DNA of 64,000 nucleotides from a virus. The stretch is taken from positions 1 to 64,000 of the IMG/VR virus record IMGVR_UViG_3300037247_001890, one strand, 5' to 3'. Shown piece after piece: positions 8,078 through 56,007 of the stretch (position 1 is its first letter; every line of letters begins with the position of its first letter). The notes beneath the pieces are model-generated. The model did no database searches, was not told the origin of the DNA, and saw only the letters and a list, made by a program, of their open reading frames with translations. The position numbers and the translations under genes were made by a program.

Positions 8078-9306
8078 AATTTATTATCCTTGTATCCATA
8101 GATGGTAGGAATAGGCATTGGAACTACAAGTTTTCCACCTTTTTTCATATACGGTTCATGTATTTTTAATAAAGTATCAATAAAATGCCATGGCAACACT
8201 ACAAAATAATCCGGATTCAGCATTAATGCCGAAGATTCACTAATAATAGGAATATTGGTCGCCACTGTTTTCTTGCCAAATTTGTCTCTATTTACCTCTG
8301 CAGCATAAGGAATGCGTTCATCCGTAATATTAAAATATTGTAACAATGTATTTCCTTTAGTTGATGCACCCATAGCAAAAATCTCTTTATTTTGAGCTTT
8401 TGCCTCATCAAAGAACTTCATTACCGTTTCTCTGATATGTTCTACTCTTTCAGCAAATGCCTCGAATGGGTCTTCAAAAGAGTTCATATAATCGCGTTCT
8501 TCTTTCTCTAAAGCATCAACTGCAGGAGAGATGTGACGCTGATCTTTCCATCCAATATACATACGAATGCTACCACCATTAACGCTGTTAGTAGACACAT
8601 CAAATACCTCCAAATCATGTTGCTCAAATAAATTACGTAACACTTTAAAGGAATAGTATTCTAGATGTTCATGACATATATTATCAAATGCATTTATTTT
8701 GAGCATCGAGAGAAGATCAGTAAATTGTACTACCCAAATACCATCTTTTAAAAGAGATTCCTTTATAAGCTCAATAAATGTATGGGGATCTTCTAAATCA
8801 TAAAACATCGCGATAGACGTAATTGCCTTTGCTTTCGGTGTTTTAATAGATATGTCTCCAAAGTACGTATTATGAAACAAAGTACAATATCTTTTTGCTT
8901 TGTTTGCTAAGTTGAGAGCAGGATCAAATCCTATTTTATATAGATCTGGTATATTGTATTGACCGAGCATCGTGCCATCATTGCATCCTATGTCTATTAC
9001 AACATCACCAGGGTGCAAATCTGCTCTTGCCTCAACGTTATCTACCACATCTTGAAGAGCTTTGACCATACTCTTATTAAGGCTAGACAAATACCAATAT
9101 TGTCTATATAGAAGGTCTAAATCTGGTGTATGCTTTAGTTGCACAAGTTCACAGCGTTTACACTTAACAAGTGTAAGAGGTGCTGATTTAATACTCTGAC
9201 CCTCATCCACAAAATCATTTAAGTAAATATCTCCTAAATCAAGTACTGTTTCTAATTCAGATCCACAAAGGCGACATGTTATTCTTTCTTTATATATTTT
9301 CTTCAT
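8059..9306 (-). CDS. Sugar C-methyltransferase (zinc-ribbon, SAM, C-terminal domains)
   Basis: 415 aa. N-terminal zinc site CRLC...CKRC (Cys11/14 and about Cys49/52), a SAM domain (VVIDIGCNDGTMLG), and a long C-terminal domain with IFAMGASTKGNTLLQYF are the three parts of TylC3/NovU-type NDP-sugar C-methyltransferases. These methylate a keto-sugar carbon. Fits next to Gmd, which makes a 4-keto sugar. Confidence 0.8.
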   Translation of the reverse strand: MKKIYKERITCRLCGSELETVLDLGDIYLNDFVDEGQSIKSAPLTLVKCKRCELVQLKHTPDLDLLYRQYWYLSSLNKSMVKALQDVVDNVEARADLHPGDVVIDIGCNDGTMLGQYNIPDLYKIGFDPALNLANKAKRYCTLFHNTYFGDISIKTPKAKAITSIAMFYDLEDPHTFIELIKESLLKDGIWVVQFTDLLSMLKINAFDNICHEHLEYYSFKVLRNLFEQHDLEVFDVSTNSVNGGSIRMYIGWKDQRHISPAVDALEKEERDYMNSFEDPFEAFAERVEHIRETVMKFFDEAKAQNKEIFAMGASTKGNTLLQYFNITDERIPYAAEVNRDKFGKKTVATNIPIISESSALMLNPDYFVVLPWHFIDTLLKIHEPYMKKGGKLVVPMPIPTIYGYKDNKLCSVPL

Positions 9307-9308
9307 AT

Positions 9309-10271
9309 TTATTTTTTTAGTAAGTTAATATCATTTTTAACCATCCGTTTAATAATTTCTGCAAATCTCACTTTTGGTTCCCAACCAAGTATTTTCTTAG
9401 CTTTGCTTGCATCTCCTCTTAGATGATCTACTTCAACAGGGCGTATGAATCTAGGATCCTCAATTATGTGATCTTGCCAACAATCTATACCGATGACCTC
9501 GAATGATTCTCTAACAAAATCCTCTACAGAATGTGATTCACCTGTCGCGAATATAAAATCCTCAGGGTTGTCCAACTGCAGCATTCCCCATATCCCCTCA
9601 ACAACATCCGGAGCATAAGACCAGTCACGACGAGGCTGTAAATTCCCAAGACGAATATTATCATCTAAATCCAAATGGATTTTTGCTACACCATTGGTTA
9701 TTTTTCTAGTTACAAATTGAATACCTCTACGTTCTGATTCATGATTAAATGAAATAGCACAACATGCAAACAGATCATATGATTCTCTATAATTCTGCAT
9801 AGTATGGTGTGCAAATATTTTTGCAACTGCGTATGGATTACGCGGATGAAACTGAGAATTCTCATTTGCAATATCGGTTTCCAGTTTACCAAACATTTCA
9901 CTTGAAGAAGCCTGAACTAGTTTTATTTTTGAATCAAACGTTCTAATTGCTTCTAATAGTCTTAGTACACCTAAGCCAGTTATATTTGCGGTATGCTCCG
10001 GCAATGTCCAGCTATCACCTACGAAGCTCTGAGCGGCAAAACTATAAACTTCATCAGGCTGAGAAATTTCTAGAGCCCTTTGAAGAGAATTAATGTCAGA
10101 TAAATCTCCTTTAATGAGTTCGATTTTGTCTACGATATGCTCTATATTCTTTCGATTGAGTTCGCTCCGGTGCCTCTCAAGCCCATACACTTCATAATTT
10201 TTTGACAAGAGTAAATCTGCCATATAAGACCCGTCTTGACCTAATATTCCTGTAATTAAAGCTCTTTTCAT
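9309..10271 (-). CDS. gmd: GDP-mannose 4,6-dehydratase
   Basis: 320 aa, usual family length. TGILGQDGSY (7-16) binds NADP; SSSEMFG (122-128) and NPYAVAK with Tyr147/Lys151 form the SDR catalytic site; RRDWSYAPD is also typical. Converts GDP-D-mannose to GDP-4-keto-6-deoxymannose, precursor of fucose, rhamnose and perosamine sugars. Feeds the cluster's transferases. Confidence 0.9.
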   Translation of the reverse strand: MKRALITGILGQDGSYMADLLLSKNYEVYGLERHRSELNRKNIEHIVDKIELIKGDLSDINSLQRALEISQPDEVYSFAAQSFVGDSWTLPEHTANITGLGVLRLLEAIRTFDSKIKLVQASSSEMFGKLETDIANENSQFHPRNPYAVAKIFAHHTMQNYRESYDLFACCAISFNHESERRGIQFVTRKITNGVAKIHLDLDDNIRLGNLQPRRDWSYAPDVVEGIWGMLQLDNPEDFIFATGESHSVEDFVRESFEVIGIDCWQDHIIEDPRFIRPVEVDHLRGDASKAKKILGWEPKVRFAEIIKRMVKNDINLLKK

Positions 10272-36250: not shown

Positions 36251-36593
36251 GGGGCTGAATGATTCGACGGATATTCAAAGTTAATATACTTCACTCCGGC
36301 ACTATAGTAGTATGGCCGTAAAGCAAACTGCAAGCTAATTAATAATTGGCAATAGTTATAGACTAGCTGCATAAGCAGCTCGACTCGCATATCAGCCACG
36401 ATATGCAAGAGTCGTTAATGCAGGCTCGGCAATCTGATTTGGCCAATCAGTGCGCCTAAAACTAGGCCAGGCGAGCATGCAGGCCTTATTCGTTTGCAAA
36501 GCATGCCAACGCTAGTGATACCTAAACGAATAAGAGTGTAAAAAAGAATATTAATTAGATTGTTCGGACCCGGTTTCGATACCGGCAGCTCCA
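36251..36593 (+). ncRNA. ssrA: tmRNA
   Basis: 343 bases. 5' end GGGGCTGAATGATTCGACGG pairs with 3' CAGCTCC in a seven-base acceptor stem, after a T-arm with CCGG stems; both ends match the tmRNA tRNA-like domain. Releases ribosomes from stopless mRNAs together with SmpB. No CCA is encoded (ACTA follows). The tag reading frame is uncertain: after GCCGTAAAGCAAACTGC, one frame ends at TAA within seven codons, another runs ten. Confidence 0.85.
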
Positions 36594-36599
36594 CTAGAG

Positions 36600-38362: not shown

Positions 38363-38842
38363 ATAAATAAGAAAGCACGCTGCAGTCGGCTAGACTGCGT
38401 AACCCGTTGTAACTTATTTATTATGGGTAGAAAAGCACGTTGTGACCGTACTCTAGGAAATGTAATCCGTTGTAATCTATCCATCCTACAGACAGAAAGC
38501 ACGCTGTGATCCAATAACAATCCATTGGATTGTTAATAACCGGGTTCACCCGGGTGATTGCGTAACCCGTTGTAACTGTTTGTAGAAAATAGTAGAGAAG
38601 CACGCTGTAACTCGAGGTCTGTTAGGGCCGCGAGGTCCATAAGGGCCGCGAGGTCCATAGGGGCCGAGTTGGGTTATGTAACCCGTTGTAATCTACCAGG
38701 GTGGAAAGCACGTTGTAATGCCCTTTAGAAGACATACGCGTAATCCGTGTACTCCACCCATTTAAGTTGTGCGGGAAAGCTCGTTATGATCTACGCGAAT
38801 GATTGTACATTCTAGAACATGTAATCCGAGTGACTACCGCAA
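38363..38842 (+). ncRNA. Six tandem copies of an unnamed structured RNA element
   Basis: Units at 38363-38421, 38423-38484, 38486-38585, 38592-38696, 38699-38759 and 38767-38842. Each is an outer stem unique to the unit, a 5' strand like AAAGCACGYTGTRA, a variable hairpin, and a 3' strand like GTAAYCCGTTGTAA. Outer stems change compensatorily (ATAAATAAG/CTTATTTAT, GGGTGGA/TCCACCC). The fourth unit's hairpin carries three GAGGTCCATAGGGGCC-like repeats. Confidence 0.75.
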
Positions 38843-40056: not shown

Positions 40057-40134
40057 TCCGCCCGTATCTCCTCCGTCTGATAAGCGGTAGAAAGAGTAGT
40101 CGGTTACAGATTGGTTCAATTCCAATAGGGCGGA
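40057..40134 (+). tRNA. tRNA-like RNA with Ile(GAT) loop and no clear D-arm
   Basis: TCCGCCC/GGGCGGA ends, T-arm ATTGG-TTCAATT-CCAAT, and loop CTGATAA in a four-pair stem (CCGT/GCGG). Only about seven bases separate the acceptor from the anticodon stem where a D-arm should be, and the variable region is about 20 bases. An AC then ATG follows, like genuine tRNAs here. A degraded or unusual tRNA-Ile. Confidence 0.45.
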
Positions 40135-40135
40135 C

Positions 40136-43087: not shown

Positions 43088-43096
43088 GGAATGCCG

Positions 43097-43259
43097 AAGA
43101 GGCGGTGACCGTATCTGTTTGGTATTACAACCTGGCAGGGGAACTATGAAGGCTGGAAATTGCTAGAAGCTTAAAGCCTATACCAATACTTACCATAGGC
43201 AAGTACTCAAATCCACTTCAAGTATAACCATAGCTATTAGCTGTATACTGCCTCTTTTT
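43097..43259 (+). ncRNA. Structured RNA ending in a T-run
   Basis: AAGAGGC at 43097 pairs with GCCTCTT at 43250, followed by five T; inside are further stems (CCTAT/ATAGG). Looks like a roughly 165-base independent RNA with a terminator-like end. Class unknown. Confidence 0.45.
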
Positions 43260-43264
43260 AACTT

Positions 43265-43472
43265 AATTAACGCCGGCATAAACGTAACTCCGTGGTGAAG
43301 CTTCCTGAGGCGGGGTGTAGTGAGCTCCTCCAAGATACCGTCGAGGGTCAAATCTGGGATCTACACAGTCCCCAGCTAAGTCCCCTAAAGAGGTTTGTAT
43401 TCTAGAGGTGAGAGCTGTCTGTGATGAATACAAGCGTGAAATATCGGAAAAAGGAATACTCCGGCGTTAATT
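43265..43472 (+). ncRNA. Stem-closed structured RNA
   Basis: 208 bases closed by a perfect 12-pair stem (AATTAACGCCGG/CCGGCGTTAATT). A long internal stem pairs GGGGTGTAG with CTACACAGTCCCC. Ends 4 bases before tRNA-Leu. Class unknown. Confidence 0.55.
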
Positions 43473-43872: not shown

Positions 43873-44085
43873 ATGAAAAAAAGAACTGTCAACATGTCAG
43901 AAGAAGTTGTGTTTGACGACATAACAGAAAAAGTCGAGACAGAAAAAATAATTGGAGATCTCACAAAAAAGTGGAAAAATAAAGACTTTTCGATAAAAGT
44001 TTATTTTAATAAAAGAATTACTAAAATACAGAACGCGGCTAGTCAAGGTACAATAGACTTTATCAGAGCTTACAAACCAAAATAA
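43873..44085 (+). CDS. Protein behind tRNA-Leu(CAA)
   Basis: 70 aa, opening MKKRTVNMSEEVVFDD; charged, alpha/beta. A73-CT-ATG junction. Ends just before a permuted tRNA-like RNA. Confidence 0.55.
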   Translation: MKKRTVNMSEEVVFDDITEKVETEKIIGDLTKKWKNKDFSIKVYFNKRITKIQNAASQGTIDFIRAYKPK

Positions 44086-44086
44086 A

Positions 44087-44154
44087 CGGGCTGCTCAGGA
44101 CAAGCAAGGTTCGATTCCTTCTCCAAGACGTTGGAGCCTCGGTGGGGGCAGCCG
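44087..44154 (+). ncRNA. Compact circularly permuted tRNA-like RNA
   Basis: The parts of a tRNA occur in the wrong order: GGGCTGC (anticodon-stem 3' strand), T-arm AAGG-TTCGATT-CCTT, acceptor CTCCAA closed by a GACG loop on TTGGAG, D-arm GCCT.CGGTGG.GGGC, then GCAGCC. The ends pair (GGCTGC/GCAGCC). This order matches the tRNA-mimic module of YrlA-type Y RNAs. Confidence 0.6.
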
Positions 44155-44158
44155 GTAT

Positions 44159-44242
44159 GCGAGTGTGGCGAAGTTGGTAGACGCGCTAGATTTAGGATCT
44201 AGTGGGGGAAACCCCGGGAAGGTTCAAATCCTTTCACTCGTA
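44159..44242 (+). tRNA. tRNA-Leu(TAG)
   Basis: GCGAGTG/CACTCGT, anticodon CTAGA-TTTAGGA-TCTAG, class II variable arm, T-arm GAAGG-TTCAAAT-CCTTT. Confidence 0.9.
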
Positions 44243-44256
44243 CTATTAGGAGGATT

Positions 44257-45073: not shown

Positions 45074-45418
45074 TCTTCGATTCGTGGCTCATAGTTTCTG
45101 TGGTAGTAATTAGATACGATCCATAAATTAACTACACTCGGGAGCGTCCAGTTCTATGGTGAAAACCCCATAACCAATGAATAGCTGTGGGTCATTGAAA
45201 CGAGAATGCGGGTGGAGAATCGGGAGTCCCGCCAGAACATGAGAGGAAACTCAGGACATCACTGCTAACGGTGGGAGAATTAAGTGTTGCAGCACTTAAA
45301 TCCAATACCACTTAGGATGCGACTCAAAATAGCTTAGAGGGAAAGCAGCTCTATAATAGCAAGGTAGAGGCCAATAGACAGATCACGAAATAATACAGAA
45401 TCCTGGTTATAAGAAGAT
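45072..45418 (+). ncRNA. rnpB: Probable RNase P RNA
   Basis: About 350 bases. GAGGAAACTCAGGACATC near 45253 resembles conserved region I, and ACAGAATCCTGGTTATAAG near 45394 resembles region V; CAGGA/TCCTG would form P4 with bases different from E. coli, i.e. a compensatory change. AGCAAGG, GGCCAATAG and a terminal ATCTTC/GAAGAT (P1-like) are also in order. RNase P RNA matures tRNA 5' ends. Divergent, so a structure search is needed. Confidence 0.55.
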
Positions 45419-45428
45419 AAACGCGCGA

Positions 45429-45532
45429 CACGTCGTTCAGGGGACTAGGCATGTGTTGTTGGGCAGGCCATATGTTTGAATTTTCCGGATAGACCAACAG
45501 CCGGAAAAAGAGAGACTGTCCCCCGACGTGTA
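45429..45532 (+). ncRNA. Stem-closed RNA with predicted pseudoknot
   Basis: Outer stem ACACGTCG.GGGGAC/GTCCCC.CGACGTGT. Inside, TGTTGG pairs with CCAACA, and TTTTCCGG with CCGGAAAA, in interleaved order, an H-type pseudoknot. Lies directly after the RNase P-like RNA. Class unknown. Confidence 0.5.
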
Positions 45533-46222: not shown

Positions 46223-46295
46223 CGCGGGGTGGTAGCAGTGGTAGCTCGCCTGGCTCATAACCAGGAGGTCGCCGGTTCAAATCCGGCCCCCGCTA
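46223..46295 (+). tRNA. Initiator tRNA-fMet(CAT)
   Basis: CGCGGGG at the 5' end against CCCCGCT leaves the first pair unpaired (C1-T72), the initiator hallmark; body closely matches E. coli fMet. Loop CTCATAA; anticodon stem CCTGG/CCAGG lacks the usual three G-C pairs. Confidence 0.85.
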
Positions 46296-46304
46296 CAATT
46301 ATAT

Positions 46305-46376
46305 CGCGCGGTAGGGCAGTGGTAGCCCGGGAGACTCATAACCTCCAGGTCGCCGGTTCAAATCCGGCCCGCGCTA
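46305..46376 (+). tRNA. Second initiator-like tRNA-Met(CAT)
   Basis: CGCGCGG/CCGCGCT again leaves C1-T72 unpaired. Loop CTCATAA, T-arm GCCGG-TTCAAAT-CCGGC identical to the first. Anticodon stem GGAGA/CCTCC has an A-C mismatch beside the loop. Nine bases after the first copy. Confidence 0.8.
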
Positions 46377-49549: not shown

Positions 49550-49644
49550 CACGTGGTAGATTAACGAGAACTGGATGATGCCAGTAATGAGATCGCTGTA
49601 ACCTTCAGGGGTGCAGAAATGAGGTTCGAGTCCTCTCCGCGTGG
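49550..49644 (+). tRNA. 95-base tRNA-like RNA, no readable anticodon
   Basis: CACGTGG/CCGCGTG acceptor (7 pairs), T8 A9, T-arm GAGG-TTCGAGT-CCTC, but the middle 50 bases do not fold as D and anticodon arms. Could be a tRNA relic, a Y-like RNA, or an intron-bearing tRNA. Confidence 0.4.
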
Positions 49645-49661
49645 CCTTATAAAACAAAATA

Positions 49662-55704: not shown

Positions 55705-56007
55705 AAAATCGATGGGCTTTCCTCGGAAACACAATGCGTAGTATTGTGGTCAAAACCTGGAATATTATGTAGTGCGATTTGAAGCAGTCCGGAGCGCGTA
55801 TCAAACAGTAAATAGTCGGACCTTGGGACAGCAGTCCGGTAAGGATGTCTTGAATCTCGAACCCCTGCTGTGGTAGCTTTTGTAAATCTTAATGGAGCCT
55901 ACGTGAACGTTTGTAACGTAACCCGTCGTCGACAGTCCCATACGTGGGGCGACTGGCACGCCGTAAGTTCATTTATCCAGTAACGTGAATAATCCCCCAT
56001 CGATTTT
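55705..56007 (+). ncRNA. 303-base stem-closed structured RNA
   Basis: Perfect 12-pair closing stem AAAATCGATGGG/CCCATCGATTTT, filling the gap between tRNA-Pro and tRNA-Cys. Near its 3' side GTAACCCG (55918) and GGCACGCCGTAA (55955) are the two conserved strands of the 38 kb tandem RNA element in swapped order. No ORF fits. Class unknown. Confidence 0.6.

What the first reader, a model, noticed from the sequence alone, without database searches (positions are those of the whole stretch)
44087..44154. Second, very compact permuted tRNA-like RNA
In 68 bases: closing stem, T-arm, acceptor hairpin with a GACG loop, D-arm, closing stem. This is a minimal tRNA mimic with the acceptor end sealed by a tetraloop, lying between tRNA-Leu genes and away from the Ro60-like gene. 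It may be a Y-like RNA in trans, a permuted tRNA, or a decoy.
Basis: partly seen in the sequence, partly recalled or inferred. Interest (0 to 1): 0.7.

Follow-up and report, generated by a model that had tools for sequence, protein, structure and literature searches.

The report
Compact tRNA-like element in phage tRNA array
A 68-base, GC-rich, tRNA-like RNA element, with its parts in permuted order, is wedged between a small gene and a leucine tRNA gene of a phage-like virus; it looks tRNA-derived and better than chance, but no other held genome has it and no function is shown.

Summary
The string described is present at 44087-44154. It has an 8-bp closing stem, a canonical T-arm (AAGG-TTCGATT-CCTT), a 6-bp hairpin with a GACG loop stacked on it, and a D-like loop. 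The 'D-arm' has only 2 bp. It fills the gap between a small conserved gene (stop at 44085) and tRNA-Leu(TAG) (44159). Its GC is 63% in a 36% GC window. Given a T-arm, this architecture arises in about 0.06-0.3% of random or shuffled flanks, so tRNA ancestry is likely and pure chance unlikely. Shuffled-sequence stability is unremarkable (z -0.7), and the T-arm is only about 36% populated in the predicted ensemble. No linear tRNA fold exists. Rfam YrlA does not match it, although a YrlA-like RNA lies beside the Ro60-like gene 14 kb away. The only close relative found is syntenic but lacks the element, and pattern scans of viral and genome collections found no homologue. Best reading: a lineage-specific, tRNA-derived, permuted tRNA-like element co-transcribed with tRNA-Leu and cut free by RNase P. 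It resembles the effector module of YrlA but is not a YrlA member. A functionless remnant is nearly as likely. Permuted tRNA gene: rejected.

The parts
44089..44096 (+). 5' strand of closing stem (GGCTGCTC)
   Evidence: fold, pairing probability 0.93-1.0
44097..44105 (+). single-stranded linker AGGACAAGC, similar to the variable region of tRNA-Ala of the same genome (AGGACATCAGC)
   Evidence: local alignment
44106..44120 (+). T-arm AAGG-TTCGATT-CCTT
   Evidence: exact tRNA T-loop consensus; in the MFE fold, ensemble probability 0.28-0.36
44121..44136 (+). acceptor-like hairpin CTCCAA-GACG-TTGGAG stacked on the T-stem
   Evidence: fold, pairing probability 0.70-0.80
44137..44145 (+). D-like loop CCTCGGTGG (2-bp stem, contains GG)
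   Evidence: fold, pairing probability 0.6
44146..44153 (+). 3' strand of closing stem (GGGCAGCC)
44159..44243 (+). tRNA-Leu(TAG); its RNase P site would set the 3' end of the element
   Evidence: ARAGORN, Rfam tRNA 54.7 bits; processing is inferred
43873..44085 (+). small gene (about 70 aa) ending 1 base before the element; 48% identical orthologue in relative G001

Best explanation
The element is a lineage-specific, tRNA-derived structured RNA inside the phage's polycistronic tRNA transcript. A tRNA 3'-half-like segment (variable region plus T-arm) is followed by a short sealed hairpin and a D-like loop, and the whole is closed by an 8-bp stem, giving the permuted order seen in the tRNA-like module of YrlA RNAs. 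Inferred working: it is transcribed with the small gene and tRNA-Leu(TAG); RNase P cleavage at the tRNA-Leu 5' end (44158/44159) frees its 3' side; the closing stem protects it; the T-arm/D-loop elbow could bind enzymes that recognise the tRNA elbow (for example the pseudouridine synthase TruB), so it could act as a small tRNA mimic without a Ro60-binding part. Shown: sequence, position, predicted fold, low chance probability, absence from the relative. Inferred: transcription, processing, protein binding, function.
For: The whole gap between stop codon and tRNA is taken up by the element. GC is 63% in a 36% GC window. The 70 nt before tRNA-Leu(TAG) fold at -25.2 kcal/mol, against -3.7 to -14.3 for other tRNA leaders in the window that do not contain a tRNA. 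The T-loop consensus is exact and the 5' 40 nt align to tRNA 3' halves above shuffled controls. Chance of the architecture given a T-arm is about 0.0006-0.003. The same genome holds related architectures: a YrlA-like RNA beside the Ro60-like gene and another permuted tRNA-like RNA in L129.
Against: No homologue was found in the nearest relative, in phage or plasmid records or by exact-pattern scans of IMG/VR and GTDB contigs. There is therefore no covariation evidence. The z-score is -0.69. The D-stem is nearly missing and the T-stem is marginal. The 3' 28 nt show no similarity to tRNAs of the genome.
Confidence: 0.42

Rival explanations
1. Functionless tRNA remnant: a tRNA 3'-half left by recombination or homing in the tRNA array, with a GC-rich flank that happens to pair.
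For: Orphan or odd T-arm segments also occur at window 40114, 49624 and 49684. At the second permuted site (L129 8532) the relative keeps a T-arm/3'-acceptor stretch without the downstream partner half. The relative has an extra tRNA-Phe 5' half beside an inserted reading frame. The element is absent from the relative.
Against: Chance of such a complete closed fold given a T-arm is about 0.0006-0.003. The sequence from stop codon to tRNA is tightly packed with no decayed spacer, and GC is high.
Confidence: 0.33
2. A leader structure of tRNA-Leu(TAG): a stable stem just 5' of the tRNA that aids folding, processing or stability of the tRNA precursor; the tRNA likeness is incidental.
For: The relative has an uninterrupted hairpin of about 10 bp 2 nt before the same tRNA-Leu(TAG), at the orthologous position; a few other tRNAs of both genomes have a hairpin a few nt upstream (Thr in G000; Pro and Ile in G001).
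Against: A simple hairpin would do; the exact T-loop consensus and sealed junction are then unexplained. Most tRNAs in both genomes lack such hairpins.
Confidence: 0.15
3. A Y-like (YrlA-type) RNA acting in trans with the Ro60-like protein.
For: Same permuted order as YrlA; the virus encodes a Ro60-like protein (phrog_850) and RtcB.
Against: No RF02553 match even at permissive thresholds; no outer Ro60-binding stem; almost no D-stem; the virus already has a YrlA-like RNA beside that gene, conserved in the relative.
Confidence: 0.07
4. A circularly permuted tRNA gene matured through a circular intermediate.
For: 3'-half before 5'-half order; RNA ligases RtcB and an RNA_ligase-family protein are encoded.
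Against: 6-bp acceptor-like stem, 4-bp T-stem, 2-bp D-stem, no encoded CCA; the left flank pairs with the right flank by at most two further pairs, so no bulge-helix-bulge at the ends; known permuted tRNA genes are from algae and one archaeon (PMC3978253).
Confidence: 0.03

Closest known systems
YrlA bacterial Y RNA (RF02553), tRNA-like effector module
   Same: Permuted order T-arm, sealed acceptor-like hairpin, D region, enclosed by a stem; Ro60-like gene in the same genome.
   Different: No covariance-model match, no Ro60-binding outer stem, D-stem of 2 bp, tetraloop-capped 6-bp hairpin, sits in the tRNA array and not beside the Ro60-like gene; 68 nt against the 90-150 nt quoted for YrlA (PMC8394870).
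Circularly permuted tRNA genes (algae, archaea)
   Same: 3'-half precedes 5'-half; short intervening sequence.
   Different: No BHB-type ends, no complete D-arm, acceptor too short, no CCA.
tmRNA tRNA-like domain
   Same: T-arm with a D-loop that has almost no stem (established knowledge of tmRNA).
   Different: No acceptor end, no tag reading frame; an ordinary tmRNA is present at 36251-36596.

Membership tests
YrlA (RF02553) | match to the Rfam covariance model | tested here: not met
   no match at E<=5, at E<=1 in 36000-64000 or at E<=1 in whole-genome search, while 58784-58911 matches with 34 bits (below the gathering score of 69)
YrlA (RF02553) | T-arm, acceptor-like hairpin and D-arm in permuted order | tested here: inconclusive
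   T-arm and hairpin present; D-stem only 2 bp
YrlA (RF02553) | basal stem that binds Rsr/Ro60 | tested here: not met
   outside the closing stem only a 2-bp extension after a one-base mismatch is predicted
YrlA (RF02553) | binding to Rsr/Ro60 and PNPase | not testable with these tools
   needs biochemistry
Circularly permuted tRNA | complete tRNA (7-bp acceptor, 5-bp T-stem, D-stem, anticodon loop) after rejoining the halves | tested here: not met
   6 bp, 4 bp, 2 bp
Circularly permuted tRNA | BHB motif or paired termini for circularisation | tested here: not met
   read from the sequence and folds
Linear tRNA | cloverleaf with 5' acceptor strand upstream | tested here: not met
   ARAGORN and Rfam negative; no upstream partner

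The most novel reading that the evidence does not exclude
A stand-alone minimal permuted tRNA mimic, without Ro60-binding module, encoded in a phage tRNA operon and released by RNase P at the neighbouring tRNA, which titrates or diverts a tRNA-elbow-binding host factor.
Probability: 0.2. Interest if true: 0.65.

Novelty: new variant of a known kind. Interest (0 to 1): 0.3.

Why it matters
If expressed, it would show that the tRNA-like module of Y RNAs can exist without its Ro60 tether, inside a viral tRNA operon, and would give a small mimic with which to find elbow-binding targets. If it is a remnant, it shows how tRNA halves in phage arrays can produce permuted-looking structures that a reader can mistake for genes.

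Tried and rejected
Linear tRNA: rejected. Junction of two adjacent tRNAs, which elsewhere mimics the permuted order and even scores about 20-29 bits with the YrlA model (46267-46328; G001 9721-9785): rejected here because no tRNA lies directly upstream. Intrinsic terminator: none called on the + strand. Homologues by blastn in phages and plasmids, exact patterns in IMG/VR and GTDB, a covariance model of the single sequence over about 1.2 Mb of held loci, relatives through neighbouring proteins: none holds the element. Scan for the YrlA loop motif GGTATGAACANGTCACA: only chance-looking matches outside this genome.

Full report
Observation. The window belongs to a 169,274-base IMG/VR virus record. 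It carries 27 ARAGORN tRNAs, a tmRNA (Rfam), RtcB, an RNA_ligase-family protein and a Ro60-like protein. At 44087-44154 the described parts are present in the described order. The closing stem is 44089-44096/44146-44153, the T-arm 44106-44120, the GACG-capped hairpin 44121-44136, and the D-like loop 44137-44145. The 'D-arm' label is generous: it has 2 bp.

Is it more than chance? By shuffled folding energy no: MFE -25.1 kcal/mol, z -0.69, 46 of 200 shuffles at least as stable. In the predicted ensemble the closing stem is firm (0.93-1.0), the hairpin 0.70-0.80, the D-like stem 0.6 and the T-stem only 0.28-0.36. By three other measures yes. First, GC is 63% where non-tRNA DNA of the window averages 36%; 0.04% of non-tRNA 68-base windows reach it. 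Second, its 70-nt leader position folds at -25.2 kcal/mol, well beyond the other tRNA leaders that contain no tRNA. Third, keeping the T-arm and randomising its surroundings reproduces the whole architecture in 31 of 50,000 insertions and 81 of 25,000 local shuffles; none of 457 other T-arms in the held loci had it. The descriptor was written after seeing the candidate, so these rates are optimistic. The several orphan T-arms in the window also raise the chance of one such case to roughly a percent.

What it is not. No linear tRNA: ARAGORN and Rfam are silent, and no 6-7 base acceptor partner lies upstream. No permuted tRNA gene in the algal/archaeal sense (PMC3978253): the stems are short, CCA is missing and the termini do not pair. 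No YrlA member: RF02553 finds the YrlA-like RNA beside the Ro60-like gene at 58784-58911 (34 bits, below the curated 69) and its counterpart in the relative, but not this element. YrlA is described as a 90-150 nt RNA with a Rsr-binding basal stem and a tRNA-like domain modified by DusA and TruB (PMC8394870); the basal stem is absent here.

Comparison with the relative. The only close relative found, G001 (IMGVR_UViG_3300027917_000021, RtcB 79% identical), is syntenic through the whole tRNA array. The small gene before the element is conserved (48%) and so is tRNA-Leu(TAG). Between them G001 has a Pyr_excise-type DNA glycosylase gene, a second small reading frame and a stable hairpin directly before the tRNA, and no trace of the element. 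The element is therefore gained in one lineage or lost in the other.

Origin and likely working. The 5' 40 bases match tRNA 3' halves of the same genome above shuffled controls (Asn T-arm; Ala variable region plus T-arm), whereas the 3' 28 bases match nothing in particular. This suggests a tRNA 3'-half remnant whose downstream part evolved or happened to close it. Because it ends 5 nt before tRNA-Leu, RNase P would define its 3' side. A TruB-type enzyme could accept its T-arm. These steps are inference. Two readings remain close in weight: a small tRNA mimic, and a functionless remnant. A leader structure for tRNA-Leu is third, helped by the unrelated hairpin at the same position in G001.

Literature. 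Jumbo phages are known to carry tRNAs, RtcB and ATP-grasp RNA ligases, and a few carry a TROVE/Ro protein with a tRNA-like partner in cellular organisms (PMC7824862). A suggestion that the YrlA tRNA-like domain may inhibit an anticodon nuclease exists (PMC7790460); the present element has no anticodon loop, so a decoy would have to act through the elbow. The main YrlA survey (Chen et al. 2014) was not held, so YrlA size and variant range rest on the review.

Noticed in passing
window 58784-58911: YrlA-like RNA (RF02553, 34 bits, E 1.3e-5 in a 651-base search) just downstream of the Ro60-like gene 57300-58682; conserved at the same place in G001 (L123 9-119, minus strand).
   Followed up: partly
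L129 about 8498-8640 (G000 C1 about 152498-152640): Another permuted tRNA-like RNA: T-arm, CCGCGCC-TCCA, loop GGTATGAACACGTCACATAC, GGCGCGG, D-arm; upstream of a VWA-domain gene. It shares the loop motif GGTATGAACAyGTCACA with the YrlA at 58784. In G001 the T-arm and CCGCGCC stretch is kept next to the orthologous VWA gene but the GGCGCGG half is not seen.
   Followed up: partly
window 38371-38790: Six copies of GAAAGCACGYTGTRAY alternating with GTAACCCGTTGTAAY-type units, spaced 60-108 bases, plus three 18-base tandem copies CGAGGTCCATAAGGGCCG; a related segment near 55910-55970; no Rfam match.
   Followed up: partly
window 49550-49645 and 40060-40135: Degenerate linear tRNA-like segments with canonical T-arms not called by ARAGORN (49550 has a 7-bp acceptor-like pairing; 40114 T-arm GGTTCAATTCC followed by GGGCGGA).
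   Followed up: partly
window 43090-43470 and 45075-45500: Two long non-coding-looking, structured-looking stretches in the tRNA array without Rfam match.
   Followed up: no
L123 13043-13690 (minus strand): In G001 a tRNA-Phe 5' half precedes an inserted reading frame (looks like a homing endonuclease, not searched) followed by a complete tRNA-Phe.
   Followed up: no
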